A DNA stretch of 64,000 bases, taken from NCBI GenBank assembly GCA_030154265.1, contig JASKKH010000007.1, forward strand, positions 1 to 64,000, in the 5' to 3' direction. A program made the position numbers and the translations under genes. The notes beneath the pieces were generated by a model. That model did not search any database and was not told the origin of the DNA. It saw only the letters and a list, made by a program, of their open reading frames with translations. Every line of letters begins with the position of its first letter. Position 1 is the first letter of the stretch. The DNA is from Clostridia bacterium. GTDB taxonomy: Bacteria; Bacillota; DSM-521; Neomoorellales; Neomoorellaceae. Shown in pieces: positions 6,594-27,668 of this stretch.

Positions 6594-6627
6594 TTTAGCA
6601 GGAAAATTTATTCCAATGGAGAATAGA

Positions 6628-6673
6628 AGTGGTATAAAGTGGAGTGTAGTGGCTCCAAGTGGAAGAAAAGTGG
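6628..6673 (+). promoter_or_regulatory. Probable MraZ operator: five AGTGG repeats
   Basis: AGTGG occurs at 6628, 6638, 6648, 6658 and 6669, with steps of 10, 10, 10 and 11 bases, so the copies lie on one face of the helix. MraZ (an AbrB-like ring protein) is known to bind tandem GTGG/TGGG repeats of about 10-bp period in front of its own gene. A TATAAA at 6633-6638, between the first two copies, could be the -10 element, so binding would block transcription. The array ends 12 nt before the mraZ start. Confidence 0.75.
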
Positions 6674-6684
6674 GAGATAGGCCC

Positions 6685-7116
6685 ATGTTTATGGGGGAAT
6701 ACCTACATACTATTGATAATAAAGGAAGATTTATTATCCCTGCCAAATTTCGTGACCAATTAGGGGAAAGCTTTGTAATTACGAAGGGCATGGATAATTG
6801 TCTTTTTGTGTACCCTATGAACGTCTGGGTAGAAATTGAACAAAAGTTAAGAAGTTTGCCTTTTACTCGTGCCGACGCCAGAGCTTTTGTTCGATTTTTC
6901 TTTTCTGGAGCCACAGAATGTGAACTAGACCGTCAAGGAAGAGTTCTTCTTCCTGTAAATTTGAGGGAATATGCCAAACTAGAGAAAGAAATTGTGGTTG
7001 TTGGTGTCTCAAATCGGATAGAAATATGGAGTCGCAAATTGTGGGATGAATATTGCCAGAAAACGGCTGAACAATATGAGGAACTGGCTGAGAAAATTGT
7101 TGATTTTGATATCTAG
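6685..7116 (+). CDS. mraZ: MraZ, transcriptional regulator of the dcw cluster
   Basis: This 143-residue protein is the usual length for MraZ, a nucleoid-associated AbrB-like DNA-binding protein that represses its own dcw operon. It carries two SpoVT/AbrB-type half-domains: [20 protein letters not shown] near the N-terminus and [19 protein letters not shown] in the second half. The open frame extends upstream to 6550, but that stretch contains a terminator and the AGTGG operator array. ATG 6685 gives the family's canonical N-terminus (MFMGEY) behind GTGGGAGATAG. It is the first gene of the dcw cluster, 12 nt ahead of rsmH. Confidence 0.92.
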
Positions 7117-7128
7117 AAGGTGGCTATT

Positions 7129-8085
7129 TTGCTTTTTGAACACAAGCCAGTATTATTGGCTGAAGTTATAGAGCTTTTAAATCCTCAACCTGGAGAATTA
7201 TTTGTTGACGCGACGGTAGGGGGCGGTGGCCATAGCATTGCAATTTTGCCGAGGTTGTATCCTGGAGGACGTTTACTGGGTTTAGACCGGGATGCAGAGG
7301 CTATTGCTGCGGCCCAGAAACGGTTGGTACATTTTGGCGAATCAGTGGAGTTAGTTCAAGCTAATTTTAAAGATATCCTATTGATTTTGAAAGAACGTAA
7401 TATTTCAGGTGTAGACGGCCTCCTATTGGACTTAGGTGTATCATCCTACCAATTAGATAATCCAAGGCGAGGCTTTAGTTATCAGACGGACGCACCTTTA
7501 GATATGAGAATGAATCAACAACAGCAAATGACAGCAGAAGATATTGTTAATTCTTGGTCTGAAGAAAAATTGGCTTCGATTATTTGGCAATACGGAGAAG
7601 AAAGATGGGCCAGTAGGATAGCTTCATTTATTGTAGAGGCTCGGAAAAAAAGAGTAATTAAAACAACTTCAGAATTAGTGGATATTATTAAAAAAGCAAT
7701 TCCGGCCGGGGCCAGAAGGGTTGGTTCCCATCCCGCCAAACGAACCTTTCAGGCTCTCCGGATTGCTTTAAATGGTGAATTGGATGCTCTAAGAACGGTT
7801 CTCGAGCAAGTAGAATTTATATTAACCCCCGGGGGGCGAATTGGTGTAATTTCCTTTCATTCCCTGGAAGATAGAATTGTAAAAGAATCATTTCGTACTT
7901 TAAGTGGTAAATGTACTTGCCCACCTGGATTACCGGTTTGTGTTTGTGGGAGTAAAAGAGTCTTAGATCTGATTACGCGAAAACCTGTAAAGCCAAAGGA
8001 AACCGAATTGGAAGTCAACCCTAGAGCACGTAGTGCTAAATTAAGAGTTGCGCAGCGAGTTCTAAAGGACAAGGAAGGTGAATAA
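7129..8085 (+). CDS. rsmH: RsmH, 16S rRNA m4C1402 methyltransferase
   Basis: RsmH (MraW) uses S-adenosylmethionine to N4-methylate C1402 of 16S rRNA in the ribosomal P site. Motifs are FEHKPVLL at the N-terminus, the SAM-binding glycine loop [23 protein letters not shown] with the following RGFSY, and [14 protein letters not shown] and [14 protein letters not shown] in the C-terminal half. The last part has two CxC-like cysteine clusters ([12 protein letters not shown]), common in Firmicute members. TTG 7129 is chosen because AGAAGGTGG lies 5 nt upstream and gives the usual [10 protein letters not shown] start. An in-frame GTG at 7120 overlaps the ribosome site. Second gene of the dcw operon. 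Confidence 0.93.
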
Positions 8086-8088
8086 GCT

Positions 8089-8616
8089 ATGATAGCAGCA
8101 CCTAAACAATATATATATGAAACAGTTAAAGAAAAAGACAAAGGAATAGAGCGGCGGATTTCTTCAAGAAGGGGAATTAACTCAAAACAAAAAGCTCAGC
8201 TTTTGGTATTAGTATTTCTAGCCTTTATAATTGGTATGAGTTTTACATACCTTAAGGTACAATTGATGATTGCTGGGTATAAGGTTGAGGACATTAAAGA
8301 AGATATTAGAACTTTGCAAAGAGAAAATGAAAATTTACAATTGGAAGTAGCCCGTCTAAAATCACCCGAACGTATTGCAATGGAAGCGGCTTCAAGATTA
8401 GATATGGTTGAAGCGCAAACAAATCAAATTTGCTACGTTCCAGGAAATTCCACCAATGATTTAACCCAGGGTTCTGAAACACTTCAGGTAGCTTCAGTAG
8501 AACAAAATAGCAAAATAACAACCTCAACAGAAGATAAAAAATCTTTACTTTCTTCCATTACACAAGTACTTTATCAATGGTTAGAACCGACATCGACTGA
8601 TAAATTAGAAGGGTGA
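8089..8616 (+). CDS. ftsL: FtsL-like cell division protein
   Basis: This bitopic division protein of 175 residues has a basic cytoplasmic N-terminus (RRISSRR), one transmembrane segment at about residues 38-58 (AQLLVLVFLAFIIGMSFTYL) and a coiled-coil/leucine-zipper stretch (IRTLQRENENLQLEVARLKSP). A family-typical turn, PERIAMEAASRLDMV, follows. The tail of about 60 residues is Ser/Thr/Gln-rich and probably disordered, and longer than in many FtsL proteins. FtsL forms a complex with FtsQ/DivIB and DivIC at midcell. The assignment rests mainly on position between rsmH and the PBP gene plus topology, since FtsL sequences diverge strongly. Confidence 0.8.
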   Translation: MIAAPKQYIYETVKEKDKGIERRISSRRGINSKQKAQLLVLVFLAFIIGMSFTYLKVQLMIAGYKVEDIKEDIRTLQRENENLQLEVARLKSPERIAMEAASRLDMVEAQTNQICYVPGNSTNDLTQGSETLQVASVEQNSKITTSTEDKKSLLSSITQVLYQWLEPTSTDKLEG

Positions 8617-8671
8617 TAATATAGGTATCTTTATGTTGATGTAATTGAGGTGTTTGTTAAGGGGCGACATT

Positions 8672-10795
8672 ATGGTTATTAACATTAATGCGCGAAAGAG
8701 GCTGGTATTTGTTTTTTTTCTTTTAGCCGCAGGGTTAACTACGGTTATCCTAAGATTAGCGTGGTTACAATTTGTTCGGGGTGCAGAACTACAAGAAAAA
8801 GCCCTTAATAATCGACTTAATGTTATGCCGGTTGCAGCCCAAAGGGGAGTGATTTACGATCGAAACCGGCATGAACTAGCTATAAGTATTGCTTCAGATT
8901 ATATAGGGGCTTTTCCTCAAGAGATAAAAGATTCTGGTCGTGCAGAGGAAATTGCTGCCACAATAGGTTCTATTTTAGATATTCCAGCCAAGGATGTTTT
9001 AGAAAAAATTACTCGCAATACTGGTTTTGAATTTATTGAACGTCAAGTTGAATTTGAAAAAGCTCAAAAAATAAAAAATTTGAAATTACCTGGTATTGAA
9101 GTTGTCCCGGAAAACAGGCGTTATTACCCTAATGGTCCCCTGGCAGCTCAAGTACTTGGTTTTGCAGGTGTTGATAACCAGGGGTTAGAAGGAATAGAGG
9201 CCATGTATGATAAACAATTGTCCGGAGAACCGGGTAAAATAGTTATTGAATTTGATGCCTTAGGTCATGAAATTCCTCGAGCTACTCACCGATATATTCC
9301 TCCCCAAAATGGTAACAGTATAGTCTTAACAATAGATCAGACAATTCAGTATATTGCTGAAAGAGAGTTAGAGAAGATAGTAAATAGTCCGACTGATCCC
9401 CTAAAAGCTAACATTATTATAATGGATTCTAAAACAGGGGAAATACTGGCTATGGCCAGTAGACCGGCTTTTGATCCGAATAATTTTGGTAAATATCCTA
9501 GCTCTGTGTGGGGTAACCCTTTGGTTAGGGATGTTTACGAGCCAGGTTCGTGTTTTAAGATTATTACAACTGCAGCGGCTTTAGAGGAAGGTATAGTAAG
9601 TCCAAACGACAGTTTTTATTGCCCGGGTTACATAAAAGTTGGTCCTGACACTATAAACTGTTGGGTTTCTCCAATGTCTCACGGCAGTGAAACTTTTGCT
9701 GAAGCTGTTAAAAATTCCTGTAATCCAGTTTTTGCGAAAGTTGCTCTTAAGCTAGAAGAAGAAAAACCGGGAAAATTTTATGACTATATCAAGGCTTTTG
9801 GTTTTGGTCATCCGACAGGTATTGATTTAACTGGTGAAGGTACTGGTTTATTAATACCTGAACAACAATTAAAACCTATTAATATTGCTACCATTGGAAT
9901 CGGGCAAGGTATTGCAGTAACACCTTTGCAGTTGGTAACAGCTGTTTCAGCAGTGGCCAATGGGGGGCGGCTGATGCGTCCCCATCTGGTAAAGGAAGTA
10001 CTTGATGAAGATGGTAATGTAATTAAGAAAATTAAACCCACCGAAATACGGCAAGTTATTTCCCCGGCAACGGCTCAGAAAGTTGCAGAATTACTTGAGA
10101 ATGTTGTTAGTAAGGGAACAGGGCGTAACGCTTACATTCCCGGATATCGGGTAGGTGGAAAGACGGGGACTGCTCAGAAGGCTGGCCCAGGTGGGTATAT
10201 GGATGGTAAATATGTAGCCTCTTTTGTTGGTTTTGCTCCGGTTAATAACCCAAGAATAGTTTGTTTAGTTACAATTGATGAACCTAAGGGATATCCTTAT
10301 TATGGTGGTACCTTGGCTGCCCCTGTTTTTAAACGGGTTGTATCTGATGTTCTTCATTATCTAAAGGTACCTGTTCAGTATGATGAGAATAAAAAAGATG
10401 AACAACCTCCCAAACCAGTAACTGTTCCTGAAGTTGTTGGTCGTGAATTATCCTCTGCTAAAGCCGAAATCGAAAAATTAGGTCTAAAGGTACGATTTGA
10501 AGGTCAAGGGGATAAGGTAATAGCACAGATACCGAAGTCAGGTGCAGTAGTACCAGCAGGGACTAAAATAATTCTTTATTTACAGAGTAATCCCAATAAA
10601 CCCAGAGTTCCTGATGTCTCAGGTCTTAGAGTAACCGAGGCAGCTCAGGTGTTGGAAGCTTATGGTTTAACTTTAGAACCACAGGGAACTGGTCAGGCGG
10701 CTGAACAAAATCCTGTTCCGGGAACGATTGTTTCTCCAGGAAATAAAGTTAGGATCAAGTTTTATGAGACGGCACGTGAGGTTTTAGGACCATAA
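8672..10795 (+). CDS. spoVD: Class B penicillin-binding protein, SpoVD/FtsI type, with two PASTA domains
   Basis: This 707-residue peptidoglycan transpeptidase begins with a single N-terminal membrane anchor (LVFVFFLLAAGLTTVILRLAW), followed by a PBP dimerisation domain (AQRGVIYDRN). The transpeptidase domain has the active serine in SCFK (about residue 293), the SCN triad in NSCNP and KTG in GGKTGTAQK (about residue 497). Two PASTA repeats follow (VPEVVGRELSSAKAEIEKLG and VPDVSGLRVTEAAQVLEAYG). PASTA-bearing SpoVD acts in spore cortex synthesis, whereas FtsI/PBP2B acts in septation. Only one such gene is present in this dcw cluster, so it may serve either or both roles. ATG 8672 follows AAGGGG; an upstream in-frame TTG lacks a site. 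Confidence 0.9.
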   Translation: MVININARKRLVFVFFLLAAGLTTVILRLAWLQFVRGAELQEKALNNRLNVMPVAAQRGVIYDRNRHELAISIASDYIGAFPQEIKDSGRAEEIAATIGSILDIPAKDVLEKITRNTGFEFIERQVEFEKAQKIKNLKLPGIEVVPENRRYYPNGPLAAQVLGFAGVDNQGLEGIEAMYDKQLSGEPGKIVIEFDALGHEIPRATHRYIPPQNGNSIVLTIDQTIQYIAERELEKIVNSPTDPLKANIIIMDSKTGEILAMASRPAFDPNNFGKYPSSVWGNPLVRDVYEPGSCFKIITTAAALEEGIVSPNDSFYCPGYIKVGPDTINCWVSPMSHGSETFAEAVKNSCNPVFAKVALKLEEEKPGKFYDYIKAFGFGHPTGIDLTGEGTGLLIPEQQLKPINIATIGIGQGIAVTPLQLVTAVSAVANGGRLMRPHLVKEVLDEDGNVIKKIKPTEIRQVISPATAQKVAELLENVVSKGTGRNAYIPGYRVGGKTGTAQKAGPGGYMDGKYVASFVGFAPVNNPRIVCLVTIDEPKGYPYYGGTLAAPVFKRVVSDVLHYLKVPVQYDENKKDEQPPKPVTVPEVVGRELSSAKAEIEKLGLKVRFEGQGDKVIAQIPKSGAVVPAGTKIILYLQSNPNKPRVPDVSGLRVTEAAQVLEAYGLTLEPQGTGQAAEQNPVPGTIVSPGNKVRIKFYETAREVLGP

Positions 10796-10798
10796 TAC

Positions 10799-10826
10799 AA
10801 CCCGGCGCTTTATTTTGCGCCGGGTT
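10799..10826 (+). terminator. G+C-rich hairpin after spoVD
   Basis: A perfect 10-bp stem AACCCGGCGC/GCGCCGGGTT with an 8-nt T-rich loop lies 3 nt past the stop codon. It lacks a downstream U-tract, so it may act as an mRNA-stabilising or processing hairpin, or as a weak terminator that lets part of the transcription reach murE. Confidence 0.6.
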
Positions 10827-10898
10827 AACCCGTTAAGACTTAAAGTGCCATTAGATGGTAAAAATACATAAATAAATACATATATATAGAAAAAATCT

Positions 10899-10928
10899 AC
10901 TACCCACAAATATTTAAAGGGTAGTTTT
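10899..10928 (+). terminator. Leader hairpin before murE
   Basis: ACTACCC at 10899-10905 pairs with GGGTAGT at 10919-10925 and is followed by TTT, immediately upstream of the AGGAGG site of murE. It could attenuate transcription or translation of murE. Evidence is structural only. Confidence 0.4.
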
Positions 10929-10944
10929 AGGAGGACTTTTAGAA

Positions 10945-12435
10945 GTGACCCTAGAGGAATTGATAGTGCCATTAAATGTAATTAATCGTGGTGGTAATCA
11001 ACAAATTTCCTTGTCTGGTCTTCATTATGATTCACGTCAGGTAAAGGAAGGGTATCTTTTCGTAGCTATAAAAGGGTACAAAACCGATGGCCATTTATTT
11101 ATCGATGATGCACTGAAAAGGGGAGCCGTGGCAGTAGTAATAGAACAAGAAGTTGATTTACCAGGGGGAACATCATGGGTACAGGTTAGTAATAGCCGCC
11201 GCGTTTTGGGGCATTTGGCGGCTCGTTTCTTTGGATATCCCGGTCAAGAGCTAAGGATAATTGGGGTTACAGGGACTAATGGAAAAACAACTACTACTAA
11301 TCTAATACAAACTGTACTTGAAGCAAGTGGTCGTTCAACAGGTTTGATAGGTACTATTGGTAATCGTTTGGGCGGTAAAACTTTACCTTCAGAACGCACA
11401 ACACCTGAGTCACTGGATTTACAGCTACTATTACGTCAAATAGTTGATCTTAAAGGGCAGGCAACAGTAATGGAAGTATCTTCACATGCCCTGGCTTTGC
11501 ATCGGCTTGAAGGAACTGAATTTGATGTAGCGGTTTTTACTAATTTAACACAAGACCATTTAGACTTCCATCAAAATATGGAAGACTATTTTAAGAGTAA
11601 AGCTTCTCTTTTTGAAAAATTAAATGAAGGGAAAAAAGAAGGAAAATATGCTATCATTAATGCTGACGATCCTTACGGTAAACGTTTGGTTGATTTGACC
11701 TCTGTACCAGTAGTCACTTATGGGTGTAGCCCTACCTGTCAGATTCATGCTACAGATATTGAGTTGAAAGCTGATGGAAGTTCCTGTAGGGTGATATGGC
11801 CCAAGGGCGAAATTAAACTTGAACTTAAACTAACAGGACGTTTTAATATATATAATGCCTTAGCAGCTTTTGCGGTGGCTTTACAAGAAGGTATTGACCC
11901 TATGAATGCGGCTAAAGCCCTTGAAAGCGTTAAGGGAGTACCCGGTCGATTAGAGCAAGTAAACCGTGGGCAACCTTTTACAGTATTAGTAGATTATGCT
12001 CATACTCCTGATGGACTGGAAAATGTTTTAGAAGTAGCTCGTCAGGTTAAGACCGGAAAATTGATATCCGTTTTCGGTTGTGGTGGTGACCGGGATAAGG
12101 GTAAACGTCCTTTAATGGGTCAAGTTGCGGCCAAGTTAAGCGATTTTAGTATCATTACTTCAGATAACCCTCGTAGTGAGGATCCTGAAGCAATTATTGA
12201 GGATATTATACCTGGGATTAAAGCAATAAATGGGGCCAAATATCAAATAGTGGTAGATAGGCGTCAAGCTATAGCTACTGCCTTGAATATAGCGAAGCCT
12301 GGGGATATAGTTGTTATTGCCGGAAAAGGACATGAAACTTATCAGATAGTTAAGAACAAGACCTTACCTTTTGATGATCGTAAAGTAGTGCGTGAAGAGT
12401 TAGAAAGATTGGGATATACCGGAGATGTTTTATAG
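10945..12435 (+). CDS. murE: MurE, UDP-MurNAc-tripeptide synthetase (meso-DAP type)
   Basis: MurE adds the third amino acid to UDP-MurNAc-L-Ala-D-Glu in the cytoplasm, using ATP. The P-loop [13 protein letters not shown] is at about residues 110-122. A carbamylated-lysine region follows, and DNPRSEDP near residue 410 is the DNPR motif that selects meso-diaminopimelate rather than lysine. That agrees with the dapF and dapL genes further right in the window. Length is normal at 496 residues. The GTG start is preceded by AGGAGG, and the gene overlaps murF by one base. Confidence 0.95.
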   Translation: MTLEELIVPLNVINRGGNQQISLSGLHYDSRQVKEGYLFVAIKGYKTDGHLFIDDALKRGAVAVVIEQEVDLPGGTSWVQVSNSRRVLGHLAARFFGYPGQELRIIGVTGTNGKTTTTNLIQTVLEASGRSTGLIGTIGNRLGGKTLPSERTTPESLDLQLLLRQIVDLKGQATVMEVSSHALALHRLEGTEFDVAVFTNLTQDHLDFHQNMEDYFKSKASLFEKLNEGKKEGKYAIINADDPYGKRLVDLTSVPVVTYGCSPTCQIHATDIELKADGSSCRVIWPKGEIKLELKLTGRFNIYNALAAFAVALQEGIDPMNAAKALESVKGVPGRLEQVNRGQPFTVLVDYAHTPDGLENVLEVARQVKTGKLISVFGCGGDRDKGKRPLMGQVAAKLSDFSIITSDNPRSEDPEAIIEDIIPGIKAINGAKYQIVVDRRQAIATALNIAKPGDIVVIAGKGHETYQIVKNKTLPFDDRKVVREELERLGYTGDVL

Positions 12436-13835
12436 TGTTTATAGCAACGGTTGGTGAGATATGTAATGCAGTGAAAGGTTGTTTGGTAGAGGGTATAGAG
12501 AGTACTAAAGTTACAGGGGTTAGTACTGATAGTCGTAATATTAAACCTGGGATGCTATTTATAGCGTTAAAGGGAGAACGTTTTGATGGTCATGATTTTA
12601 TAGCTGATGCATTAAAAAGTGGAGTAGTGGCAGTTATTGCTGAATATTTCCCTGATAATGTTAAGAAAACAATAGAGGGAAATCAGTCCTTAATAAAAGT
12701 GAAAGATACTCTCTTTGCCCTACAAAATTTAGCAACATATCATCGGAAAAAAATTCTTCAAGGTCCCTTGGTTGCTGTAACAGGCTCGAGTGGTAAAACA
12801 AGCACCAAAAATCTTGTGGCGTCTGTTTTAAGTACTAATTTTAAGGTTCTGAAAACAACGGGTAATCATAATAATGAAATTGGCCTTCCTCTTACCCTTT
12901 TAAACCTAACCCCTGAACATCAGGTAGCAGTTGTAGAAATGGCAATGCGGGGACCAGGGCAAATAGCTGCTTTAGCAGAAATAGCAGAACCTAACGTAGG
13001 TGTTATTACTAATATAGGAACATCTCACTTGGAACTTCTAGGGTCAATAAATAATATAGCCTCGGCTAAAGGAGAATTATTAACAAGTTTACCTCCTGAA
13101 GGTGTTGCAATTTTAAACGGTGATGATCAATGGTGCCGCCGATTAGCTAATAAATGTGGCTGTCGAGTTCTTTATTATGGTGTAAAAAATCCAGCAGATG
13201 TTAGTGCCAAAGATATTAAATATTTAGATTGGGAAGGTACTGAATTTAAGGTTGTTTTTCCGGATGAGGAGGAAGTAAAAATTAAAATACCGGTATTGGG
13301 TCTCCATAATGTTTATAATTCTCTTGCGGCCTTAACAGTTGGCTATCATCTGGGTTTAAAGCCTAAGAATATGATTAAAGGTTTTACTGAATGGCCTGTA
13401 GAGGGTATGCGCCAGGAATTAAAGGTTGGTCCGAAAGGCTCAATGGTTTTTAATGACGCTTATAATGCTAATCCTGAATCTATGAAGGCTGCCCTTAAAG
13501 TTCTTGAAACCCTTCCTGGACGTAAAATAGCTGTCCTTGGGGACATGCGTGAATTAGGTCATGAGGCAGTTAATCTTCATAAGGAATTAGGACGAGTTGT
13601 AGCTAAAGCAGGGATTTACCGCTTAATTACAGTAGGAAAGTTAGCTAAAAAGATTGCAACTGGTGCCATGGAGGCCGGAATGTCACCCAAACAAATTTTT
13701 ATTTGCTTTGCTCATCGAGAAGCTGCTAAATATTTAAAGGATCTTGGAAAAGGAGATATAGTTCTTTTTAAGGGGTCCCGTCTGATAGGTATGGAAAAAG
13801 TTTTAAAGGCCTGGGAGGAAATGTTCAATGGTTGA
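12435..13835 (+). CDS. murF: MurF, UDP-MurNAc-tripeptide-D-Ala-D-Ala ligase
   Basis: MurF adds D-Ala-D-Ala to the tripeptide, completing the UDP-MurNAc-pentapeptide. The N-terminal domain carries GVSTDSRNIKPGMLFIALKG, the ATP loop is VTGSSGKTSTKN, and FNDAYNANPESMKAAL is the family signature in the C-terminal ligase domain. The length of 466 residues is typical. The GTG start overlaps the murE stop (TAGTG) and the 3' end overlaps mraY by 8 nt, indicating translational coupling in the operon. Confidence 0.94.
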   Translation: MFIATVGEICNAVKGCLVEGIESTKVTGVSTDSRNIKPGMLFIALKGERFDGHDFIADALKSGVVAVIAEYFPDNVKKTIEGNQSLIKVKDTLFALQNLATYHRKKILQGPLVAVTGSSGKTSTKNLVASVLSTNFKVLKTTGNHNNEIGLPLTLLNLTPEHQVAVVEMAMRGPGQIAALAEIAEPNVGVITNIGTSHLELLGSINNIASAKGELLTSLPPEGVAILNGDDQWCRRLANKCGCRVLYYGVKNPADVSAKDIKYLDWEGTEFKVVFPDEEEVKIKIPVLGLHNVYNSLAALTVGYHLGLKPKNMIKGFTEWPVEGMRQELKVGPKGSMVFNDAYNANPESMKAALKVLETLPGRKIAVLGDMRELGHEAVNLHKELGRVVAKAGIYRLITVGKLAKKIATGAMEAGMSPKQIFICFAHREAAKYLKDLGKGDIVLFKGSRLIGMEKVLKAWEEMFNG

Positions 13836-14784
13836 AGCATTAAAAGCTCTCGGGCTGGCAACAGTTATCACTGTGGTTTTAGGGCCACCAGTTATCGGTT
13901 TTCTTAGGAGACTTAAAGCAGGTCAAACAGTTCGTGATGATGGACCTCGTAGTCATCTGGTTAAAACTGGAACCCCCACTATGGGTGGGATATTATTTTT
14001 AATTGGTTTTACGATAACTTCTTTAGTAATTTTACCAACTTCTCCAGTAATTTTATCAGCCTTATTAATTACATGGGGATATGCCCTAATTGGATTAGTT
14101 GATGATGGTTTAAAAGTAATTTTGCATCGGCCTTTGGGACTCATGGCCAGGCAAAAGCTTGGCGGTCAGATTTTTCTAGGTCTTGTTACTGGAGTAGTGG
14201 TGATGTATTGGTTGGGTAGAGGTAGTATTATTCAGGTTCCGATTATCGGTTGGAGCCTGGATATAGGATGGTACTATCCCTTTTTTGCAGCTTTACTTCT
14301 TGTTGCTACAACTAATGCTGTCAATTTAACTGACGGTCTAGATGGTTTGGCAACTGGTATCACAATCTGGGTTGCTTTAGCTTATGGTTTGTTTACCTAT
14401 GCTTTAGGACAGAACGATTTATTAATATTTACCATGTCCCTTGTGGGAGGATGTGTAGGCTTTTTAGTGTATAATATTTACCCGGCAAAAGTTTTTATGG
14501 GTGATACAGGTTCTTTGGGTTTAGGAGCTGCAATTGGCTTTTTAGCGATTATGACTCGCACCGAGTTGGTTTTACCTGTTTTAGGTGGAGTTTATGTTAT
14601 AGAAGCCTTATCTGTTATTCTTCAGGTGTTTTTCTTTCGTCTAACAGGAAAACGTTTATTACGGATGAGTCCCTTACACCATCATTTTGAGCTTTTGGGT
14701 TGGTCGGAAAAAAAAGTTGTAGCCTTTTTCTGGATAATGGGGTTAATTTTGGCTGTAGGTGGTCTTTGCATTTTAGCAATATAG
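13828..14784 (+). CDS. mraY: MraY, phospho-MurNAc-pentapeptide transferase
   Basis: MraY transfers phospho-MurNAc-pentapeptide to undecaprenyl phosphate, making lipid I at the inner face of the membrane. It is a polytopic protein of 318 residues with about ten transmembrane helices. Family motifs are GTPTMGGI, LVDDGLKV (catalytic aspartates), NAVNLTDGLDGLA, FMGDTGSLGLGA and SPLHHHFELLGW. The start overlaps the end of murF. The length is slightly below the E. coli protein but normal for Firmicutes. Confidence 0.95.
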   Translation: MVEALKALGLATVITVVLGPPVIGFLRRLKAGQTVRDDGPRSHLVKTGTPTMGGILFLIGFTITSLVILPTSPVILSALLITWGYALIGLVDDGLKVILHRPLGLMARQKLGGQIFLGLVTGVVVMYWLGRGSIIQVPIIGWSLDIGWYYPFFAALLLVATTNAVNLTDGLDGLATGITIWVALAYGLFTYALGQNDLLIFTMSLVGGCVGFLVYNIYPAKVFMGDTGSLGLGAAIGFLAIMTRTELVLPVLGGVYVIEALSVILQVFFFRLTGKRLLRMSPLHHHFELLGWSEKKVVAFFWIMGLILAVGGLCILAI

Positions 14785-14811
14785 AAAGGGAAAGTGGAAG
14801 AAGGTATAAAA

Positions 14812-16173
14812 ATGACTTGGACTGGAAAAAAAGTTTTGATTGTAGGTTTAGGAAAAAGCGGAAAAGCAGCAGCAGTAGAACTAGCTAGACTTGGGGCTGA
14901 AGTTATAGCTTGTGATAAGAAGTCTATTAATATGGCAGAACTAAAAGATTTGAGTGAGGCTGGAATTGAGCTTGTTTTAGGGAGGTATCCAGATTTAGAA
15001 AGCATTAAACCTGATTTGGTAATAACAAGTCCAGGTGTGCCTTCTGATGAAAGTCCTCTAGCTATTGCAAAAAAAATGGGTATTCCGGTATGGAGCGAGT
15101 TAGAGATGGCTTTCAGGTTTTTAGAACGACAAACAAAGGTAGCTGCTATTACTGGTACCAATGGAAAGACTACAACCACCAGCCTTTGTGGTTACATTCT
15201 TCAACGGGCTAATTTACCGGTGGTGGTGGGTGGTAATATAGGAACGCCCTTGGTTAAAGCTGTCAAAGATATACAGCCCAATAGCTATGTTGTTACTGAA
15301 GTAAGTAGTTTCATGCTTGAAAACATCGCCTCTTTTCATCCACGAGTTTCGGTGATTTTAAATATTACCCCGGATCACCTCGATCGGCACGGTAATATGG
15401 ACAATTACGTTAAAGCCAAAGAGAATATTATGGCTTTTCAAGATCCTCAAGATTTTGTGGTTTTAAATTATGATGATCCATTAACTCGTAATTTAGCTAA
15501 ACGTGCAAAACCACAGGTGTTATTTTTTAGTTTGAATGAAAAGCTGGATAAAGGAGCTTATTTAAAAGAGGGAGTTGTTTGTTGTAACTTAGGTAATGGT
15601 GAAATTAAGCTTTGTCATTATGAAGAACTATCTCTAAAAGGAAGCCATAACGTTCAAAATGTTATGGCTGCTTCCCTCGTTGCTTTAGCTTTGGGGGTCA
15701 ACCCCTCTGATTTAATTGAAGCTTTAAAAACTTTCCCCGGTGTTTCTCACCGTTTGGAACTGGTAGAAGATATAAATGGTGTGATTTACATTAATGACTC
15801 TAAGGGAACTAATCCTGAGGCGACAATAAAAGCTTTAGAGGCTTATGACAATCCTATAATACTTATAGCTGGGGGAAGGAACAAGGGAAGCGATTTTACT
15901 AAGCTGGCTCAAAAAATGGTTGGCCGTGTAAAATATCTTATCCTTATTGGAGAAGCTACTGGGGATTTGGAGCTTGCGGCCAAATCAGTTGGAATTAAAG
16001 ACATTTACAGAGCTCCTGATTTTAATTCTACGGTACTGAAAGCAGCCAAGGTGGCAGAACCTGGAGATGTGGTTATGCTTTCACCAGCTTGTGCTAGTTG
16101 GGATATGTTTAAAAGTTACGAAGAACGGGGCGATCTTTTTAAGAAGTTAGTTGCCCAGTTACCAAAAGATTAG
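14812..16173 (+). CDS. murD: MurD, UDP-MurNAc-L-Ala:D-Glu ligase
   Basis: MurD adds D-glutamate to UDP-MurNAc-L-alanine. The N-terminal nucleotide-sugar domain begins [17 protein letters not shown], the ATP loop is [12 protein letters not shown], and [13 protein letters not shown] and [13 protein letters not shown] are typical Mur ligase motifs. The product is 453 residues, normal for the family. ATG 14812 is preferred because AAGAAGG sits 8 nt upstream; an in-frame GTG at 14794 has a poorer context. It lies between mraY and ftsW, as in Bacillus. Confidence 0.94.
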
Positions 16174-16224
16174 ACGGTAGTTGAGCACAGGCTAAATCTC
16201 TCATACGTTTAGGGGGACTCTCTC

Positions 16225-17319
16225 ATGAGGCGACGGGCTGGTACTTTGGATTTTTGGATAGTGTTATCAACCTCAGTTTTATTAGGTATGGGAATAATTA
16301 TGGTTTTTAGTGCTAGTGCTCTCACTTCTTCTTATAATTTAGGGGATGCCTTTTTTTATCTAAAACGCCAATTGATTTGGGCTTTTTTGGGATTGATTGG
16401 AATGTCATTTATGTTAAAATTTGACTACCATTATTTGAAGCGTTTGGCTGCCCCTGTTTTAGGAATATCAATTATTTTGTTATTATTAGTTTTGATTATC
16501 GGTATTAGCTCACATGGGTCAGCCCGTTGGCTAGGTGTTGGTTCTCTTTCTTTTCAACCATCTGAAGTTATCAAATTAGCCATGGTAATTTTTTTAGCAG
16601 CCAGTTTGGCTGATAATCGGCACCGTCTTAAAAATTTTATTCAAGGTTTAGGTCCGTATCTTGCACTAATGGTTGTAGTTTGTGCTTTAATACTAGCCCA
16701 ACCTGACCTTGGTACTTCTGTGGCGGTGGCTGGTACGACCTATTTAATGTTAACTGTTGCTGGTGCTGATAGGCGGCATCTATTTATGTTAGCTTTGGCT
16801 GGGGTTGGGGCTGTGGTCCTGGCAATTATATTAGCACCCTACCGTATGGCACGATTTACGGCATTTTTAGATCCTTGGGCATATGCTCAAGGATACGGAT
16901 ATCAGACTATCCAATCCCTATTAGCTATTGGTTCTGGGGGGTTATTTGGAACTGGTCTGGGTCAAGGCCGTCAAAAGCTTTATTATGTTCCAGAGAAACA
17001 TACAGATTTTATTTTTGCTATCTTAAGTGAAGAATTAGGTTTTATTGGTGCTGCACTAGTTGTTATTTTCTTTTTAGTGCTTGTTTGGCGTGGCTTTAAT
17101 ACTGCATTCAAGGCTCCTGATACCTTTGGCAGTTTTTTAGCTGCTGGGTTAACAATTATGTTGGCTATTCAAGCACTTATTAATATGGGGGTTGTTACAG
17201 GGATGTTACCTGTAACAGGAATAACCCTTCCTTTGGTCAGTTATGGTGGTTCTTCGCTTATCTTTTCCTTAGTTGGTATTGGTATTTTACTCAATATATC
17301 CAGGTATGCCGGTAGTTAG
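16225..17319 (+). CDS. ftsW: FtsW/SpoVE family SEDS glycosyltransferase
   Basis: This polytopic SEDS (shape, elongation, division, sporulation) protein has 364 residues and about ten transmembrane helices. It polymerises lipid II into glycan strands together with a class B PBP, here probably the SpoVD-type protein encoded upstream. Diagnostic parts are GIIMVFSAS in the first helix, LGVGSLSFQPSEVIKLAMV, AQPDLGTS, YVPEKHTDFIFAILSEELGF and LPLVSYGGSSL near the end. Whether it serves division (FtsW), sporulation (SpoVE) or both cannot be decided from sequence. The ATG follows AGGGGGAC. Confidence 0.92.
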   Translation: MRRRAGTLDFWIVLSTSVLLGMGIIMVFSASALTSSYNLGDAFFYLKRQLIWAFLGLIGMSFMLKFDYHYLKRLAAPVLGISIILLLLVLIIGISSHGSARWLGVGSLSFQPSEVIKLAMVIFLAASLADNRHRLKNFIQGLGPYLALMVVVCALILAQPDLGTSVAVAGTTYLMLTVAGADRRHLFMLALAGVGAVVLAIILAPYRMARFTAFLDPWAYAQGYGYQTIQSLLAIGSGGLFGTGLGQGRQKLYYVPEKHTDFIFAILSEELGFIGAALVVIFFLVLVWRGFNTAFKAPDTFGSFLAAGLTIMLAIQALINMGVVTGMLPVTGITLPLVSYGGSSLIFSLVGIGILLNISRYAGS

Positions 17320-17332
17320 GGGGGACCGGAAT

Positions 17333-18442
17333 TTGCGGATTATAATTACCGGTGGTGGTACTGGTGGCCACGTCTACCCAGCATTGGCCATTGCTCGTGG
17401 ATTGCAAGAGGTTCGCCCAGATGTAGAAATTCAATACATTGGTACTTCAAGAGGGTTAGAAGCAGATGTAGTACCTCGAGCTGGGCTAAATTTTAAGACC
17501 GTTACCGTTAAAGGTTTAGAACGGAGAAAATTTTGGCGAAATATCCCTGCCTTGGCTAAGTTAAGTAAGGGATTTATAGAGGCCTGGTTTTTGGTAAGGC
17601 GTTTTAATCCAGACATTGTTGTAGGCAGTGGTGGCTATGTTTGTGCCCCAGTTTGTTTTGCTGCGGCTCTTCAGGGGATACCAGTTGTATTACATGAACA
17701 AAATGCTGTTCCGGGTATTACAAATCGATTACTATCAAACTTGGCTCGGCTTGTTTGTTTAACCTTTGAAGAGGCAGCTAACCATTTTTCTCGTCGTGCT
17801 AAGCTAATAACTACCGGTTTACCAGTACGCCCAGAGATTCTTAATGCTGATAGAGAGACTAACAGGGAAAGGCTGGGCCTTAATAAAAATCAGTTATTCA
17901 TAGTTGTTGTAGGAGGTAGTCAGGGGGCCAAAAGCATAAACCAAGCGATGTTGCCGATATTAAACGAAATGAAAACACGAAATGATATCAGTGTATTACA
18001 TGTAACAGGACGCCGTGACTATGAGGCCTATCTTGATAAGGTGCAGGCATTGGGAATAGATTTGGCTGAACATGGAAATATTACAATTAAGCCCTATGTA
18101 TATGACATGGAGAATGCCCTGGCTGCAGCCGATTTAGTTATAGGACGTGCAGGGGCTTCTTTTTTAGCAGAAATACTGGCTAGAGGTTTACCGTCAATTT
18201 TGATTCCTTATCCATATGCTGCAGCTAATCATCAGGAGTTTAATGCTCGTGCCGTTGCTAAGAAAGGAGCTGCTTTGTTGGTTTTAGACCGTGAATTAAA
18301 GGCAGGACGTCTATATAAAAGTTTATTAGAATTGTTAGATGATAAAAAGCGTTTGAAGTCCATGGGTATGGCGGCTTCAAAGTTAGGTCGTCCTGATGCT
18401 TTGAGTATAATTGTTGAGAAAATTTTATCCGAGGCGAAATAA
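17333..18442 (+). CDS. murG: MurG, lipid II-forming GlcNAc transferase
   Basis: MurG transfers GlcNAc from UDP-GlcNAc to lipid I on the cytoplasmic face. The N-terminal glycine loop ITGGGTGGHVYPALAIA, the HEQNAVPGITNRLL segment and the second-domain loop VVGGSQGAKSINQ are clear, and AGASFLAEILARGLPSILIPYP forms the donor-binding part. TTG 17333 is chosen since AGGGGGGACC is just upstream and the protein then starts at the first beta strand. The in-frame extension further upstream lies within ftsW. The product of 369 residues is normal. Confidence 0.94.
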   Translation: MRIIITGGGTGGHVYPALAIARGLQEVRPDVEIQYIGTSRGLEADVVPRAGLNFKTVTVKGLERRKFWRNIPALAKLSKGFIEAWFLVRRFNPDIVVGSGGYVCAPVCFAAALQGIPVVLHEQNAVPGITNRLLSNLARLVCLTFEEAANHFSRRAKLITTGLPVRPEILNADRETNRERLGLNKNQLFIVVVGGSQGAKSINQAMLPILNEMKTRNDISVLHVTGRRDYEAYLDKVQALGIDLAEHGNITIKPYVYDMENALAAADLVIGRAGASFLAEILARGLPSILIPYPYAAANHQEFNARAVAKKGAALLVLDRELKAGRLYKSLLELLDDKKRLKSMGMAASKLGRPDALSIIVEKILSEAK

Positions 18443-18557
18443 TTTATAAATCTTTAAGTAATTATTGACGGACAAGTCCTGTAACCCGGTTTAAAGGTTT
18501 TGCATATGATGCATATGTACCACTGGGGTGGGGCTCCGAAGGAAGGAGATGGTAGAC

Positions 18558-19952
18558 TTGGGAGCTGGGGGGTTGACCCACTTTGTAGGCATCGGCGGGG
18601 TAGGTATGAGTGGCTTAGCTCGCTTGTTGTTAGCTCAGGGTTATAAAGTATCAGGTTCAGATCAGAAGGAAAATAGATTTACTAAGGATTTAGAAGAAGC
18701 TGGAGCGATTGTTTACCATGGGCATGATGCTAAAAATTTAGCACCAGAAGTTAGCGAAATAATAGTATCTACTGCAATACCTCCTACAAATCCGGAGGTT
18801 ATGGCTGGTAAAGAACGTGGTCTACCTATAACTAAACGAGGGCAGTTGTTGGCACGCTTATTCAATAACAAAACCGGTATTGCTATAGCTGGAGCCCATG
18901 GCAAAACTACAACTTCTGCTATGGTGGCTCTTGTTCTTCACGAGGCTGGATTGAAGCCGTCTGCAGTCATTGGTGGCTATGTTCGTGAGTTTGGTGGAAA
19001 TGCTTTAGTAGGTCAAGGACCTTATATGGTAGCGGAAGCCGACGAAAGTGACGGTTCTTTTCTGCGGTTGAAGCCGCAAATGGCCCTTGTGACTAATATC
19101 GAGGCAGACCATCTTGATTACTATAATAGTTTTGATCGAATTATTAATGCTTTTATTACTTTTATTAATAATATCAGTTCAACTGGAAAAGCAGTTTTGT
19201 GTACAGATAACTCTCAGTTAGCAGCATTAGCTAGTAAGGTTTCTACCGATGTAATCTCATATGGGTTTAATGGAACTCCAGATTATCGAGTAGATAATCT
19301 TGAATTTTATGGAATAGGTAGTCGTGCCTCTGTTTACTATCATGACGAATATTTAGGAAAGCTGACTTTGAAGGTACCTGGGCGGCACAATATATTGAAT
19401 GCTCTGGGAACATTTGCTGTAGCCCATCAACTGGGCATACCGTTTAAAATTATAAATAATGCTTTAGGTAAATTTCGAGGTGTTGGCCGTCGTTTCGAAA
19501 TTTTATGGGATGAGGATACATGGGTTATTGATGACTATGCCCACCATCCGACTGAAATTAAGTCAACTCTTGAAGCCGCAAGTCAGCTTGGAGCAAGACG
19601 GATAATAGCAGTCTTCCAACCCCATCGTTATACTCGTACTCAGCATTTTTATAAGGAATTCGGGCAGGCTTTTCATAAAGCGGATGTGGTAGTCATTAAT
19701 GATATTTATGCTGCCGGGGAAGCTCCTATACCCGGAGTTTCTGCTGAATTAATAACTAGAGAAATGAGCAAAGCAGGTCACCCCGAAGTATATTATCTAC
19801 CTACATTAGATGAAACCCTGAATTTTTTAAAAAACAATTATATTAATGGAGATATAATTCTAACCTTGGGGGCTGGAGATGTTTGGCAAGTAGGAGTAAG
19901 TTTAGCACAATATCTCCAAAGTCAACAAGCTTTACCCGAGGTGGGAACTTAA
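18558..19952 (+). CDS. murC: MurC, UDP-MurNAc:L-alanine ligase
   Basis: MurC attaches L-alanine to UDP-MurNAc, the first peptide step. The Rossmann loop [17 protein letters not shown], the ATP loop [23 protein letters not shown] and [10 protein letters not shown] are family signatures. AAGGAG ends at 18548, so TTG 18558 is spaced well, while ATG 18549 is immediately adjacent to the site; either start is possible and differs by three residues. The 85-nt gap before it contains a doubled GCATATG. Its stop codon is directly followed by the murB ATG. Confidence 0.93.
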
Positions 19953-20864
19953 ATGTCGTCATTAACAACCTTGGCTAAAGAATTACAAAAAAATTTAACT
20001 TTTCCGGTTAAAACAAATGAACCTTTAAGCCGCTATACGACATGGAGGGTTGGAGGTCCAGCTGATTTATTTGTTCAGCCATTGAAACAGGAAGAGTTGT
20101 CATTCTGTTTAGATTTTGCCAATCGTAAAGGGTTACCCGTTTACATCATGGGTAACGGTTCAAACCTTCTAGTTAAAGATGGTGGTGTAAGAGGTTTAGT
20201 AATACAAACTAAGAACTTATGTAAAATTAATGTTGATGGTCAGAATATACAGGCTGATTGTGGAGTATTATTACCTCGATTATTACAAGTGGTAACAGAG
20301 AACGGACTTGGAGGGCTAGAATTTGCTGCAGGCATTCCTGCAACTATTGGTGGAGCAGTGGTAATGAATGCAGGAACACCTGCAGGTTGTTTAGGAGATG
20401 TTGTTAAGGGAGTAGAAGTACTTACGCTTGATGGCGAACGGAAGCTTCTAAACCGTAAAGATATAAACTTTTCCTATCGCAATAGTTCAATAAAACAGGA
20501 AGGCATAGTGGTGTCAGTTAATTTAGAATTGCCTTTTACAGATAGTGGGTTTAGCAGAGAAAAGATAAAGGAAATTTTAGCGCGTCGTCATTCAACCCAA
20601 CCAATTAAATGGTCAAATGCTGGTAGTATTTTCAAAAACCCCCCTGAACATTATGCAGGGCAATTAATTGAGAAAGTAGGAGCCAAGGGTTGGCGAGTAG
20701 GCGAGGCAGAAGTGTCTGAAAAGCATGCTAATTTTATTATTAATCGAGGTCAAGCCAAGGCTAGTGATGTTTTAGAGCTAATATCAAAAATTCAGGATGC
20801 CGTATATGACCAATTTGGAATTAAACTAGAACTTGAAATTGAAGTTTGGGGTGAAGGCCTATAG
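19953..20864 (+). CDS. murB: MurB, UDP-N-acetylenolpyruvoylglucosamine reductase
   Basis: MurB is the FAD-dependent reductase that converts the enolpyruvyl intermediate to UDP-MurNAc with NADPH. It has TTWRVGGPADLFVQP, the FAD-binding GNGSNLLVKDGG, AGIPATIGGAVVMNAG, SYRNSS and a C-terminal AGSIFKNP followed by GWRVGEAEVSEKHANFI. Absence of the extra loop makes it type II, as in most Firmicutes, and 303 residues fits. GAGGTGGG lies before the ATG, which abuts the murC stop. Confidence 0.94.
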   Translation: MSSLTTLAKELQKNLTFPVKTNEPLSRYTTWRVGGPADLFVQPLKQEELSFCLDFANRKGLPVYIMGNGSNLLVKDGGVRGLVIQTKNLCKINVDGQNIQADCGVLLPRLLQVVTENGLGGLEFAAGIPATIGGAVVMNAGTPAGCLGDVVKGVEVLTLDGERKLLNRKDINFSYRNSSIKQEGIVVSVNLELPFTDSGFSREKIKEILARRHSTQPIKWSNAGSIFKNPPEHYAGQLIEKVGAKGWRVGEAEVSEKHANFIINRGQAKASDVLELISKIQDAVYDQFGIKLELEIEVWGEGL

Positions 20865-20883
20865 CTTTGGGGAGGGATAGGCC

Positions 20884-22143
20884 TTGAAAAATATTATTGT
20901 TGCTACCGGAGGAAGAAGCCTTGAAGGTTCAATAGAAGTTCATGGGGCTAAAAATGCAGCTTTACCCATAATTGCAGCTACAATTCTAGCAACAGGAGAA
21001 TGTCACCTAGAAGGTGTTCCTTTACTACAAGACGTTGTTACAATGAGTAATGTTATCCGTTCCATTGGTTTAGGTGTAGAGGCCAATGGCCGTGAACTTG
21101 TAATAGTGCCAACACCGACGGTTAATCCCGAAGTACCTTCAGAATTAATGCGTAAATTAAGAGCTTCAAACTTGGTTATGGGTCCCCTATTAGGACGGTA
21201 TCATTATTTTCGGGTTCCCTATCCTGGAGGTTGTGCTATCGGCTCTCGTCCTATGAATATACACCTTAAGGGATTAGCAGCTATGGGGGCAGAAATTACT
21301 GAGAAACAGGGTTTTATTGAGGCTAAGACAAAAGGTCTTCGAGGTACAGATATATATTTAGATTTTCCTAGTGTTGGAGCTACTGAAAATTTAATGATGG
21401 CTGCCGTTCTAGCAGATGGTGTTACTAATCTTCATAACGCCGCCAGGGAACCGGAAATCATCGATTTGCAGAATTTTCTAAATAATATAGGTGCTTGCAT
21501 TAGTGGAGCTGGTGAGGGAACTATTGTAATTGAAGGGGTAAAGGAACTTGACGGAACAAGTTATAAAATTATACCTGATCGAATAGAAGCTGCTACATTT
21601 TTAGCAGCAGCAGTAGGTACAGGTGGTGACATATTAATAAAATCATGTTTGCCTCAACATTTTCTATCAGTTTTAGCTAAATTTAAAGAAATGGGTGCTA
21701 AAATATCAATTTACAAAGATGGAATTCGTGTTAAGGGTCCGCAACGGTTAAAGGCTGTTGATTGTAAGACTTTGCCCTATCCTGGTTTCCCTACCGATGT
21801 ACAGCCTCAACTTATGGCTTTGATGACTGTTGCTGAAGGGACTAGTGTTTTAGTTGAGAGTATTTTTGAAAATAGATTCAAACATGTAGCTGAATTAAGA
21901 CGACTTGGAGCCGATATAAAGGTAGAAGGACAGATAGCAGTTGTAAATGGTGTTCGGTCATTAAGCGGGAGTAATGTAGAGGCTTCTGATCTTAGGGCTG
22001 GGGCAGCTTTAGTTATAGCCGGTTTAATGGCCGAAGGTGAAACTATAATAGAAGGTATTAACCATATAGACCGCGGTTATGAGCAAATTGAAAAAAGCTT
22101 TCAAAAATTAGGAGCTCAAATTGAACGAAAAATTAAAAATTAA
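20884..22143 (+). CDS. murA: MurA, UDP-GlcNAc 1-carboxyvinyltransferase
   Basis: MurA transfers enolpyruvate from PEP to UDP-GlcNAc, the committed step of peptidoglycan synthesis. The catalytic cysteine loop PGGCAIGSRP, with Cys at about residue 117, is intact, so the enzyme would be expected to be fosfomycin-sensitive. KNAALPIIAATILA, EAATFLAAAVGTGGD and DLRAGAALVIAGLMAEG are further family motifs. The TTG start is served by GGGGAGGG. Length is normal at 419 residues. It is placed after murB within the dcw cluster, a Clostridia-like arrangement. Confidence 0.94.
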   Translation: MKNIIVATGGRSLEGSIEVHGAKNAALPIIAATILATGECHLEGVPLLQDVVTMSNVIRSIGLGVEANGRELVIVPTPTVNPEVPSELMRKLRASNLVMGPLLGRYHYFRVPYPGGCAIGSRPMNIHLKGLAAMGAEITEKQGFIEAKTKGLRGTDIYLDFPSVGATENLMMAAVLADGVTNLHNAAREPEIIDLQNFLNNIGACISGAGEGTIVIEGVKELDGTSYKIIPDRIEAATFLAAAVGTGGDILIKSCLPQHFLSVLAKFKEMGAKISIYKDGIRVKGPQRLKAVDCKTLPYPGFPTDVQPQLMALMTVAEGTSVLVESIFENRFKHVAELRRLGADIKVEGQIAVVNGVRSLSGSNVEASDLRAGAALVIAGLMAEGETIIEGINHIDRGYEQIEKSFQKLGAQIERKIKN

Positions 22144-22183
22144 GCCGGTGTTCTGTGAATACCGGTTCCTTATAGTTATTGGG

Positions 22184-22211
22184 TAGACAGGCTGTATCTT
22201 TCTGGTATAAT
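22184..22211 (+). promoter_or_regulatory. Extended -10 promoter before ftsQ
   Basis: TAGACA (22184-22189) and TATAAT (22206-22211) are 16 nt apart, with TGG directly before the -10 element giving an extended -10. It would give ftsQ-sbp-ftsA-ftsZ a promoter independent of the mur genes. Confidence 0.65.
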
Positions 22212-22232
22212 GGCATTAAATGGGGTTAAAAA

Positions 22233-22988: not shown

Positions 22989-23023
22989 CTAGGATTAGGT
23001 TAAAAAGGAGCGAGTAAAAAAAT

Positions 23024-23356: not shown

Positions 23357-23438
23357 AAAAGCGTTTTGTAAAAAAAGGGAAAGGCAAACTTATGTTGAAT
23401 TTTCATCCTTAGATAGGTGAACTTGGAGGTGCCGGAGT

Positions 23439-24671: not shown

Positions 24672-24693
24672 GTCTAAAAAGGAGGAGTTTCGG

Positions 24694-25871: not shown

Positions 25872-25942
25872 AAAACCAGTTATTATATTGCCATATTGAA
25901 CATATCATGGTAATAATTACTGCTGTTGTGCCAGGGAGAGGG

Positions 25943-26869: not shown

Positions 26870-26880
26870 GGGGAATGCCC

Positions 26881-27606: not shown

Positions 27607-27627
27607 GGGTTTAATGAATTTAACTAT

Positions 27628-27648
27628 GGAGCCATTTGGCTCCTTTTT
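27628..27648 (+). terminator. Intrinsic terminator after sigE
   Basis: A 6-bp stem GGAGCC/GGCTCC with a tight ATTT loop is followed by TTTTTATTTTT. It separates the spoIIGA-sigE transcript from sigG. Confidence 0.88.
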
Positions 27649-27668
27649 ATTTTTGCTTTTTTTAAACT

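What the first reader, a model, noticed from the sequence alone, without database searches (positions are those of the whole stretch)
6628..6673. Five phased AGTGG boxes form a probable MraZ operator
AGTGG recurs at 10-10-10-11 nt and overlaps a possible -10 element just before mraZ. Known MraZ operators usually have three or four repeats, so five is a large array. It also proves that the long upstream extension of the mraZ frame is not coding.
Basis: partly seen in the sequence, partly recalled or inferred. Interest (0 to 1): 0.5.

Follow-up and report, generated by a model that had tools for sequence, protein, structure and literature searches.

The report
SigmaH promoter with five-box MraZ operator
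The repeats are almost certainly where the cell-division regulator MraZ binds to control its own operon, and they sit directly behind a promoter of the type read by the sporulation sigma factor SigH, an arrangement that recurs in many spore-forming bacteria and suggests that the division genes are wired to the start of sporulation.

Summary
In detail: AGTGG at 6628, 6638, 6648, 6658 and 6669 (steps 10-10-10-11) just before mraZ (ATG 6685), the only such array in the genome. The MraZ-operator reading is well supported: a GTGG triple at 10-bp steps precedes mraZ in 101 of 111 non-redundant loci. A full set of five is rare (10 of 299 phylum genomes). A better promoter lies just upstream: a SigH-type site (6598-6626, 17 of 18 consensus positions) whose GAAT ends 3 nt before box 1. 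AGGA-N17/18-GAAT precedes mraZ in 64 of 111 loci (shuffles mean 1.2, maximum 6); promoter plus boxes occurs in 118 of 299 phylum genomes (reversed control 0). It tracks SigH: 28 of 31 SigH-positive named genomes against 2 of 18 others, at up to one mismatch. The operon runs mraZ...spoVD...ftsZ, then spoIIGA-sigE-sigG-spoIIR. Proposed mechanism: SigH polymerase starts dcw transcription and MraZ on the array blocks it. No binding or transcript data were available.

The parts
6598..6606 (+). SigH-type -35 element GCAGGAAAA (consensus RNAGGAWWW, 9 of 9)
   Evidence: consensus quoted in PMC8510167; AGGA-N17/18-GAAT conserved in 64 of 111 mraZ loci
6618..6626 (+). SigH-type -10 element GGAGAATAG (consensus RNNGAATWW, 8 of 9), 11 nt after the -35 element
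6628..6632 (+). MraZ box 1 AGTGG, 3 nt after GAAT, probably at the transcription start (inferred)
6638..6642 (+). MraZ box 2 AGTGG (core slot)
6648..6652 (+). MraZ box 3 AGTGG (core slot)
6658..6662 (+). MraZ box 4 AGTGG (weakly conserved slot, degenerate in 4 of 16 family members)
6669..6673 (+). MraZ box 5 AGTGG, at +41 from box 1 (conserved distal slot); overlaps the ribosome-binding site
6672..6676 (+). likely ribosome-binding site GGGAG, 8 nt before the ATG
   Evidence: sequence
6685..7116 (+). mraZ (143 aa), true start at ATG 6685 rather than 6550
   Evidence: PF02381 164.4 bits; TIGR00242 184.8 bits, cut-off 98.35, residue 1 to profile position 1
7120..25758 (+). rest of the dcw cluster: rsmH/mraW, ftsL, spoVD, murE, murF, mraY, murD, ftsW/spoVE, murG, murC, murB, murA, ftsQ-like, ftsA, ftsZ (ftsL, mraY and mur names by recall from the translations; ftsQ match below cut-off)
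   Evidence: ORFs; mraW; spoVD, ftsW/spoVE, ftsQ-like, ftsA, ftsZ
25907..29143 (+). spoIIGA, sigE, sigG, spoIIR directly after ftsZ
   Evidence: all four over their curated cut-offs

Best explanation
[quoted passage not shown] RNA polymerase carrying SigH binds 6598-6626 and starts about 6-8 nt after GAAT, near 6631 (inferred). MraZ, the first gene's product, binds the five helically phased AGTGG boxes as a multi-subunit ring or arc, one box per DNA-binding face (inferred from recalled MraZ biology). Because the array covers the start site and the whole leader down to the ribosome-binding site, bound MraZ would block open-complex formation or promoter escape, so the operon represses itself. 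Boxes 1-3 form the core and box 5, 41 bp (about four turns) from box 1, is a conserved extra contact; box 4 fills the gap in the window's lineage and would make binding tighter or more cooperative. Shown: the sequence features, their spacing, their conservation and their tracking with the SigH gene. Inferred: use by SigH, the start site, MraZ binding and repression.
For: Boxes: exact array, unique in the genome; a 10-10 NGTGG triple in 101 of 111 non-redundant mraZ loci; all five NGTGG slots in 10 of 16 family members including the window (four of these ten are near-identical Moorella-type regions), and two more with one slot a single base off NGTGG. Distal slot: AGTGG at +41 from box 1 in 24 of 100 loci against 0.24 expected per offset (mononucleotide shuffle), kept while the distance to ATG varies from 11 to 24; preceded by AA in 17 of 24, like slots 2 (64 of 92) and 3 (53 of 77). 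Promoter: AGGA-N17/18-GAAT in 64 of 111 loci, the other tested spacings 5-31 in 0-5 loci each, shuffles mean 1.16, maximum 6; joint promoter plus triple in 118 of 299 phylum genomes, reversed control 0 of 299, and just upstream of mraZ in all 27 of these genomes whose mraZ place is known. SigH is encoded in the genome (TIGR02859, 373.9 bits, cut-off 294.8). Among 49 named genomes the promoter at up to 1 mismatch is present in 28 of 31 with SigH over cut-off (shuffles mean 3.2, maximum 9) and 2 of 18 without (shuffles mean 0.7, maximum 3) (Fisher p 3.7e-8, not corrected for kinship). The operon carries SpoVD and runs up to spoIIGA-sigE-sigG-spoIIR. MraZ as repressor of its own dcw cluster through upstream MraZ boxes in E. 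coli is described in a passage of PMC8475190.
Against: No binding, footprint or transcript data. With the exact motif only, the SigH link is weaker: 17 of 31 against 2 of 18 (p 0.0027). Two phylum relatives with the exact promoter (G025, 99% complete; G051, 95%) show no SigH at E 1e-40, and two named MAGs with it show none at E 1e-30 (L041, L067). Three SigH-positive Bacillaceae loci (L084, L086, L087) lack the motif, and the one-mismatch matches of other Bacillaceae may be partly chance. Slot 5 could be kept partly as a ribosome-binding site. MraZ overexpression in Mycoplasma gallisepticum was associated with more FtsZ (passage of PMC8475190), so the sign of regulation is not certain.
Confidence: 0.77

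Rival explanations
1. MraZ operator read from an ordinary SigA promoter: TGGTATAAA (6630-6638) is an extended -10 overlapping boxes 1 and 2, and the SigH-like motif is incidental or secondary.
For: TATAA fills spacer 1 in 10 of 101 loci but spacer 2 in only 1 of 101; in some SigH-negative loci a SigA-like promoter precedes the boxes (L106 and L110 11 of 12, L101 10 of 12). The scan could not report TATAAA, as it requires a final T.
Against: The best -35 at 16-18 nt from TATAAA matches 3 of 6; 91 of 101 loci do not have TATAA there; the SigH motif has a sharp spacing peak and tracks SigH.
Confidence: 0.12
2. Only boxes 1-4 (or 1-3) are operator; box 5 is the ribosome-binding region and its AGTGG is kept for translation.
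For: Box 5 overlaps GGGAG 6672-6676, and 13 of the 47 AGTGG boxes found downstream of box 3 start exactly 16 nt before ATG.
Against: The +41 offset stays while the distance to ATG varies from 11 to 24; AA precedes it as often as the core boxes (17 of 24).
Confidence: 0.2
3. The G-rich repeats act as a G-quadruplex in DNA or leader RNA, as claimed for the S. aureus mraZ promoter (PMC11796246, abstract and passages).
For: The array holds five GG tracts; a G4 has been reported in another mraZ promoter.
Against: A G4 does not need a fixed 10-bp step, which 101 of 111 loci keep, nor the T of GTGG; T in the core slots is fixed by the anchor of that call, but at the unanchored +41 slot it is also the commonest letter (54%). 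Loops of about 8 nt between two-G tracts are unfavourable (recalled rule). The leader RNA folds little better than shuffles (z -1.51).
Confidence: 0.03
4. The repeats are coding sequence of a longer MraZ starting at 6550.
For: The frame is open from 6550.
Against: Homology to relatives' MraZ begins at residue 1 of the 6685 start in 57 of 58 printed; TIGR00242 matches from that residue; the extension has no Pfam match; the predicted promoter lies inside it. I did not search relatives with the extended protein.
Confidence: 0.02

Closest known systems
MraZ boxes of Escherichia coli Pmra (Eraso 2014; details recalled, paper not held)
   Same: Direct repeats with a 10-bp period upstream of mraZ; repression of the own dcw cluster by MraZ (the latter also in a passage of PMC8475190)
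   Different: E. coli has three TGGGN repeats behind an ordinary housekeeping promoter (both recalled); here five AGTGG boxes behind a SigH-type promoter
MraZ binding site of Mollicutes, series of AAAGTG[T/G] repeats (Fisunov 2016, as described in a passage of PMC8475190)
   Same: Same AAAGTGG-like box in a series before mraZ; in M. genitalium, as here, the only site of its kind in the chromosome
   Different: Mollicute-like loci here lack the SigH-type promoter (3 of 3 non-redundant loci at 3-5 mismatches)
SigH (Spo0H) promoters of Bacillus, RNAGGAWWW / RNNGAATWW (passage of PMC8510167)
   Same: -35 and -10 sequences; SigH gene in the genome
   Different: SigH dependence of this promoter is untested, and I saw no list of published SigH targets, so whether mraZ is among them was checked only through

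Membership tests
MraZ operator | Lies just upstream of mraZ at the head of a dcw cluster | tested here: met
MraZ operator | At least three direct repeats of a G-rich box at a 10-bp step | tested here: met
   five boxes at 10-10-10-11
MraZ operator | Conserved with mraZ in relatives | tested here: met
   triple in 101 of 111 loci; family table of 16
MraZ operator | Cognate MraZ protein encoded | tested here: met
   TIGR00242 184.8 bits, cut-off 98.35
MraZ operator | Bound by MraZ and needed for regulation | not testable with these tools
   needs gel shift, footprint, reporter
SigH promoter | -35 RNAGGAWWW and -10 RNNGAATWW | tested here: met
   9 of 9 and 8 of 9 positions (consensus)
SigH promoter | Spacer of 11-12 nt (recalled) | tested here: met
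   11 nt here; spacing peak at AGGA-N17 (54 loci) and N18 (10 loci) of 111
SigH promoter | SigH encoded in the same genome | tested here: met
SigH promoter | Presence tracks SigH across species | tested here: met
   28 of 31 against 2 of 18 at up to one mismatch, 17 of 31 against 2 of 18 exact; among 58 relatives 49 of 52 with full SigH had 0-1 mismatch, but so did 2 of 3 without a SigH hit and 2 of 3 below cut-off
SigH promoter | Transcription lost without SigH | not testable with these tools
   needs a sigH mutant
SigA promoter at TATAAA | A TTGACA-like -35 at 16-18 nt | tested here: not met
   best hexamer 3 of 6; an extended -10 (TGG before TATAAA) remains possible

The most novel reading that the evidence does not exclude
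A composite SigH promoter plus MraZ operator is the usual, possibly ancestral, head of the dcw operon in endospore-forming Bacillota. It puts division and cell-wall genes (including spoVD and spoVE) under the transition-state sigma factor with MraZ as brake, and it decays or is replaced by other promoters in lineages that lose SigH.
Probability: 0.55. Interest if true: 0.65.

Novelty: new variant of a known kind. Interest (0 to 1): 0.5.

Why it matters
MraZ is a widely conserved bacterial regulator, yet I found little in the papers I could see on what drives its operon outside a few models. A SigH-type promoter fused to the MraZ array would explain how spore-formers tie the dcw cluster, whose SEDS and bPBP genes serve sporulation in these bacteria (PMC10693644, abstract and passages), to sporulation entry. 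It gives one short DNA segment on which repression by MraZ and activation by SigH can both be tested. The slot register also gives a natural series (3, 4, 5 and 6 boxes) for asking how many boxes a MraZ ring uses.

Tried and rejected
SigA promoter scan around the array: nothing on the + strand of 6400-7200, with the limit that the scan demands a final T in the -10; a direct look at TATAAA gives at best 3 of 6 in the -35. RNA structure of the leader: not significant (z -1.51; 16 of 200 shuffles at least as good). Literature: ten searches showed no paper describing a SigH promoter at mraZ; some searches looked for it directly, and I saw only the listed rows (20 of 43, 20 of 191 and 3 of 3). The library lacks most subscription journals; the E. 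coli and B. subtilis MraZ papers are not held, so prior knowledge of this promoter is not excluded. A general SigA-for-SigH promoter swap in SigH-negative loci is clear for only 3 of 18 (best SigA score 10 or 11 of 12: L101, L106, L110), so I do not claim it as a rule. G-quadruplex and coding readings are rejected as given under rivals. One search looked only at the last 140 nt and scored G029 as lacking the promoter; one search finds it further upstream (four boxes are visible).

Rows dropped: of 139 upstream regions (138 loci plus the window) one was too short (L104) and 27 were near-duplicates, leaving 111. The profile is anchored on GTGG triples, so the core G-T-G-G there is by construction. 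The four five-box genomes outside the window's family were not each checked to lie at mraZ (G025 is).

Full report
What is there. A triple of boxes at 10-bp steps occurs nowhere else in the 1.99-Mb draft genome at up to one mismatch, and from the window's own AGTGG frequency five such boxes would be expected about 8e-10 times in 64 kb. mraZ starts at 6685, not at the in-frame ATG 6550: the family models match from its first residue, and the alignment to relatives begins at residue 1 in 57 of the 58 relatives printed (residue 2 in L125).

How general the array is. I compared the DNA upstream of mraZ in 80 named loci and 58 relatives' genomes, 111 non-redundant regions including the window. The longest chain of NGTGG boxes at 10 or 11 bp was 3 in 82, 4 in 11, 5 in 7, 6 in 1, 2 in 7 and 1 in 3. 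Anchored on the first 10-10 NGTGG triple (101 of 111 loci), the profile shows, besides the three anchor boxes, a preference for A before boxes 2 and 3 (91% and 76%), a weak slot at +30/31 and a clear further box at +41. AGTGG at +41 is found in 24 of 100 loci, where 0.24 is expected for any one offset; its distance to the ATG ranges from 11 to 24, so it follows the array rather than the start codon. The window's box 5 is this +41 box. In the window's own family, template slots 0-10-20-30-41 are all NGTGG in 10 of 16 genomes including the window (four of the ten, L015, L021, L022 and L023, are near-identical); box 4 is the slot that most often decays, in 4 of 16. Two family members (G004, G008) gave no MraZ hit at all. 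Across the phylum the complete exact pattern occurs in 10 of 299 genomes, six of them in this family. So five boxes is unusual but shared, and the slots look old.

The promoter. Directly upstream is GCAGGAAAA-N11-GGAGAATAG (6598-6626, checked), a 17 of 18 match to the SigH consensus RNAGGAWWW / RNNGAATWW as quoted in PMC8510167 (passage). Its GAAT ends 3 nt before box 1. AGGA-N17/18-GAAT precedes mraZ in 64 of 111 loci; each other spacing from 5 to 31 was found in at most 5, and 100 sets of dinucleotide shuffles gave a mean of 1.16, maximum 6. The combined element (AGGA-N17-GAAT, then three GTGG at 10-bp steps within 20 nt) is present in 118 of 299 phylum genomes and its reversed control in none. 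I did not check all 118 for mraZ, but in all 27 whose mraZ place is known the hit lies just upstream of mraZ. The strict N17 and exact 10-10 requirement will miss variants.

Does it go with SigH? The genome encodes SigH. Of 49 named genomes searched, 31 have SigH over the curated cut-off; the promoter at up to one mismatch is present in 28 of these (shuffles mean 3.2, maximum 9) and in 2 of the other 18 (shuffles mean 0.7, maximum 3), which include Lactobacillales, Mollicute-like, Nitrospirota and Peptoniphilales genomes, grouped by me from the record titles. With exact matches it is 17 of 31 against 2 of 18. Among the 58 relatives, 49 of 52 with full SigH have 0-1 mismatch, but so do 2 of 3 in which SigH was not found and 2 of 3 below cut-off; the first two (G025, G051) stand against a strict link unless the gene is missing from those assemblies. 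Species are related, so the p value of 3.7e-8 is not to be taken literally. In the own genome the stricter motif AGGAWWW-N11/12-RNNGAATA has 25 sites against 8 for the reversed pattern; in 5 of 25 the site lay inside an ORF of at least 100 aa on one strand or the other, one of them being the mraZ site itself inside the spurious 6550 extension. Some ORFs after these sites look like mbl/mreB, atpI, prs, radA and flgB (names by recall from the translations, not scanned).

TATAAA at 6633-6638 is spacer 1 plus the A of box 2. The exact form [TG]GNAA fills spacer 1 in 34 and spacer 2 in 39 of 101 loci; TATAA fills spacer 1 in 10 and spacer 2 in 1 of 101, so a secondary SigA start in some species is possible. 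Here the best -35 at 16-18 nt matches 3 of 6; the general scan found nothing on the + strand but could not have reported TATAAA.

Setting. The operon runs mraZ, mraW, ftsL, spoVD, murE, murF, mraY, murD, ftsW/spoVE, murG, murC, murB, murA, an ftsQ-like gene, ftsA and ftsZ, and is followed by spoIIGA, sigE, sigG and spoIIR (ORFs; family scans; the mur, mraY and ftsL names are recalled from the translations). SpoVD is over its cut-off (726.9 bits, cut-off 688); the SEDS protein is over the FtsW cut-off and just under that of SpoVE (431.8, cut-off 448.8); the ftsQ match is far below cut-off. PMC10693644 (abstract and passages) reports that dcw-encoded SEDS and bPBP genes of spore-formers likely serve sporulation, which fits SigH control.

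Mechanism. SigH polymerase would start near 6631; MraZ on the array would cover the start and the leader and block initiation or escape, giving autorepression. Solved MraZ structures exist (1n0e-1n0g, 9qlr, 9qlg/9r4j, 9sx6/9sz7, seen as a listing by sequence only); that MraZ forms rings is recalled. The 11-bp last step brings box 5 to 41 bp, close to four turns, so all boxes face one side of the helix (inference). The direction of control is taken from E. coli and M. genitalium as described in passages of PMC8475190; that passage also notes that MraZ overexpression in M. gallisepticum was associated with more FtsZ, so the sign is not settled.

Verdict. The boxes are a MraZ operator, a known kind of element with an unusually full set of sites. 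What is less ordinary is the conserved SigH-type promoter attached to it. I found no report of it in the library searched (with the limits stated), and cannot exclude one in journals not held.

Noticed in passing
window 25907-29143: spoIIGA, sigE, sigG and spoIIR follow ftsZ directly, joining the dcw cluster to the sporulation sigma cassette.
   Followed up: partly
window 6643-6647: An extra AGTGT lies half a turn out of phase between boxes 2 and 3.
   Followed up: no
L123 (G029): SigH-type promoter plus boxes lie well over 100 nt before mraZ, leaving a long GC-rich leader. G113 and G199 of the same family hold the combined element too, but their distance to mraZ was not checked.
   Followed up: no
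G025 (L006) and G051 (L005): Exact SigH-type promoter at mraZ although no SigH gene was found at E 1e-40; gene loss or assembly gap.
   Followed up: no
L006 (G025), also G071: L006 has six phased boxes before mraZ (10-10-10-11-11); G071 of the same genus shares the first five.
   Followed up: no
G008 (same genus label as most family members) and G004: No MraZ match at all although both genomes are 97-99% complete.
   Followed up: no
L151-L175 (own genome): 25 SigH-consensus sites, some before ORFs that look like mbl/mreB, atpI, prs, radA and flgB: a candidate SigH regulon (names recalled).
   Followed up: partly
L043, L056, L061 and similar Paenibacillus loci: The AGGATTTTT of the SigH -35 element appears to double as the second half and tail of the upstream gene's terminator hairpin (read by eye).
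   Followed up: no
S. aureus mraZ promoter, PMC11796246: The G-rich tract reported there as a G-quadruplex lies downstream of the mraZ promoter, where MraZ boxes would be expected; worth re-checking (passages).
   Followed up: no
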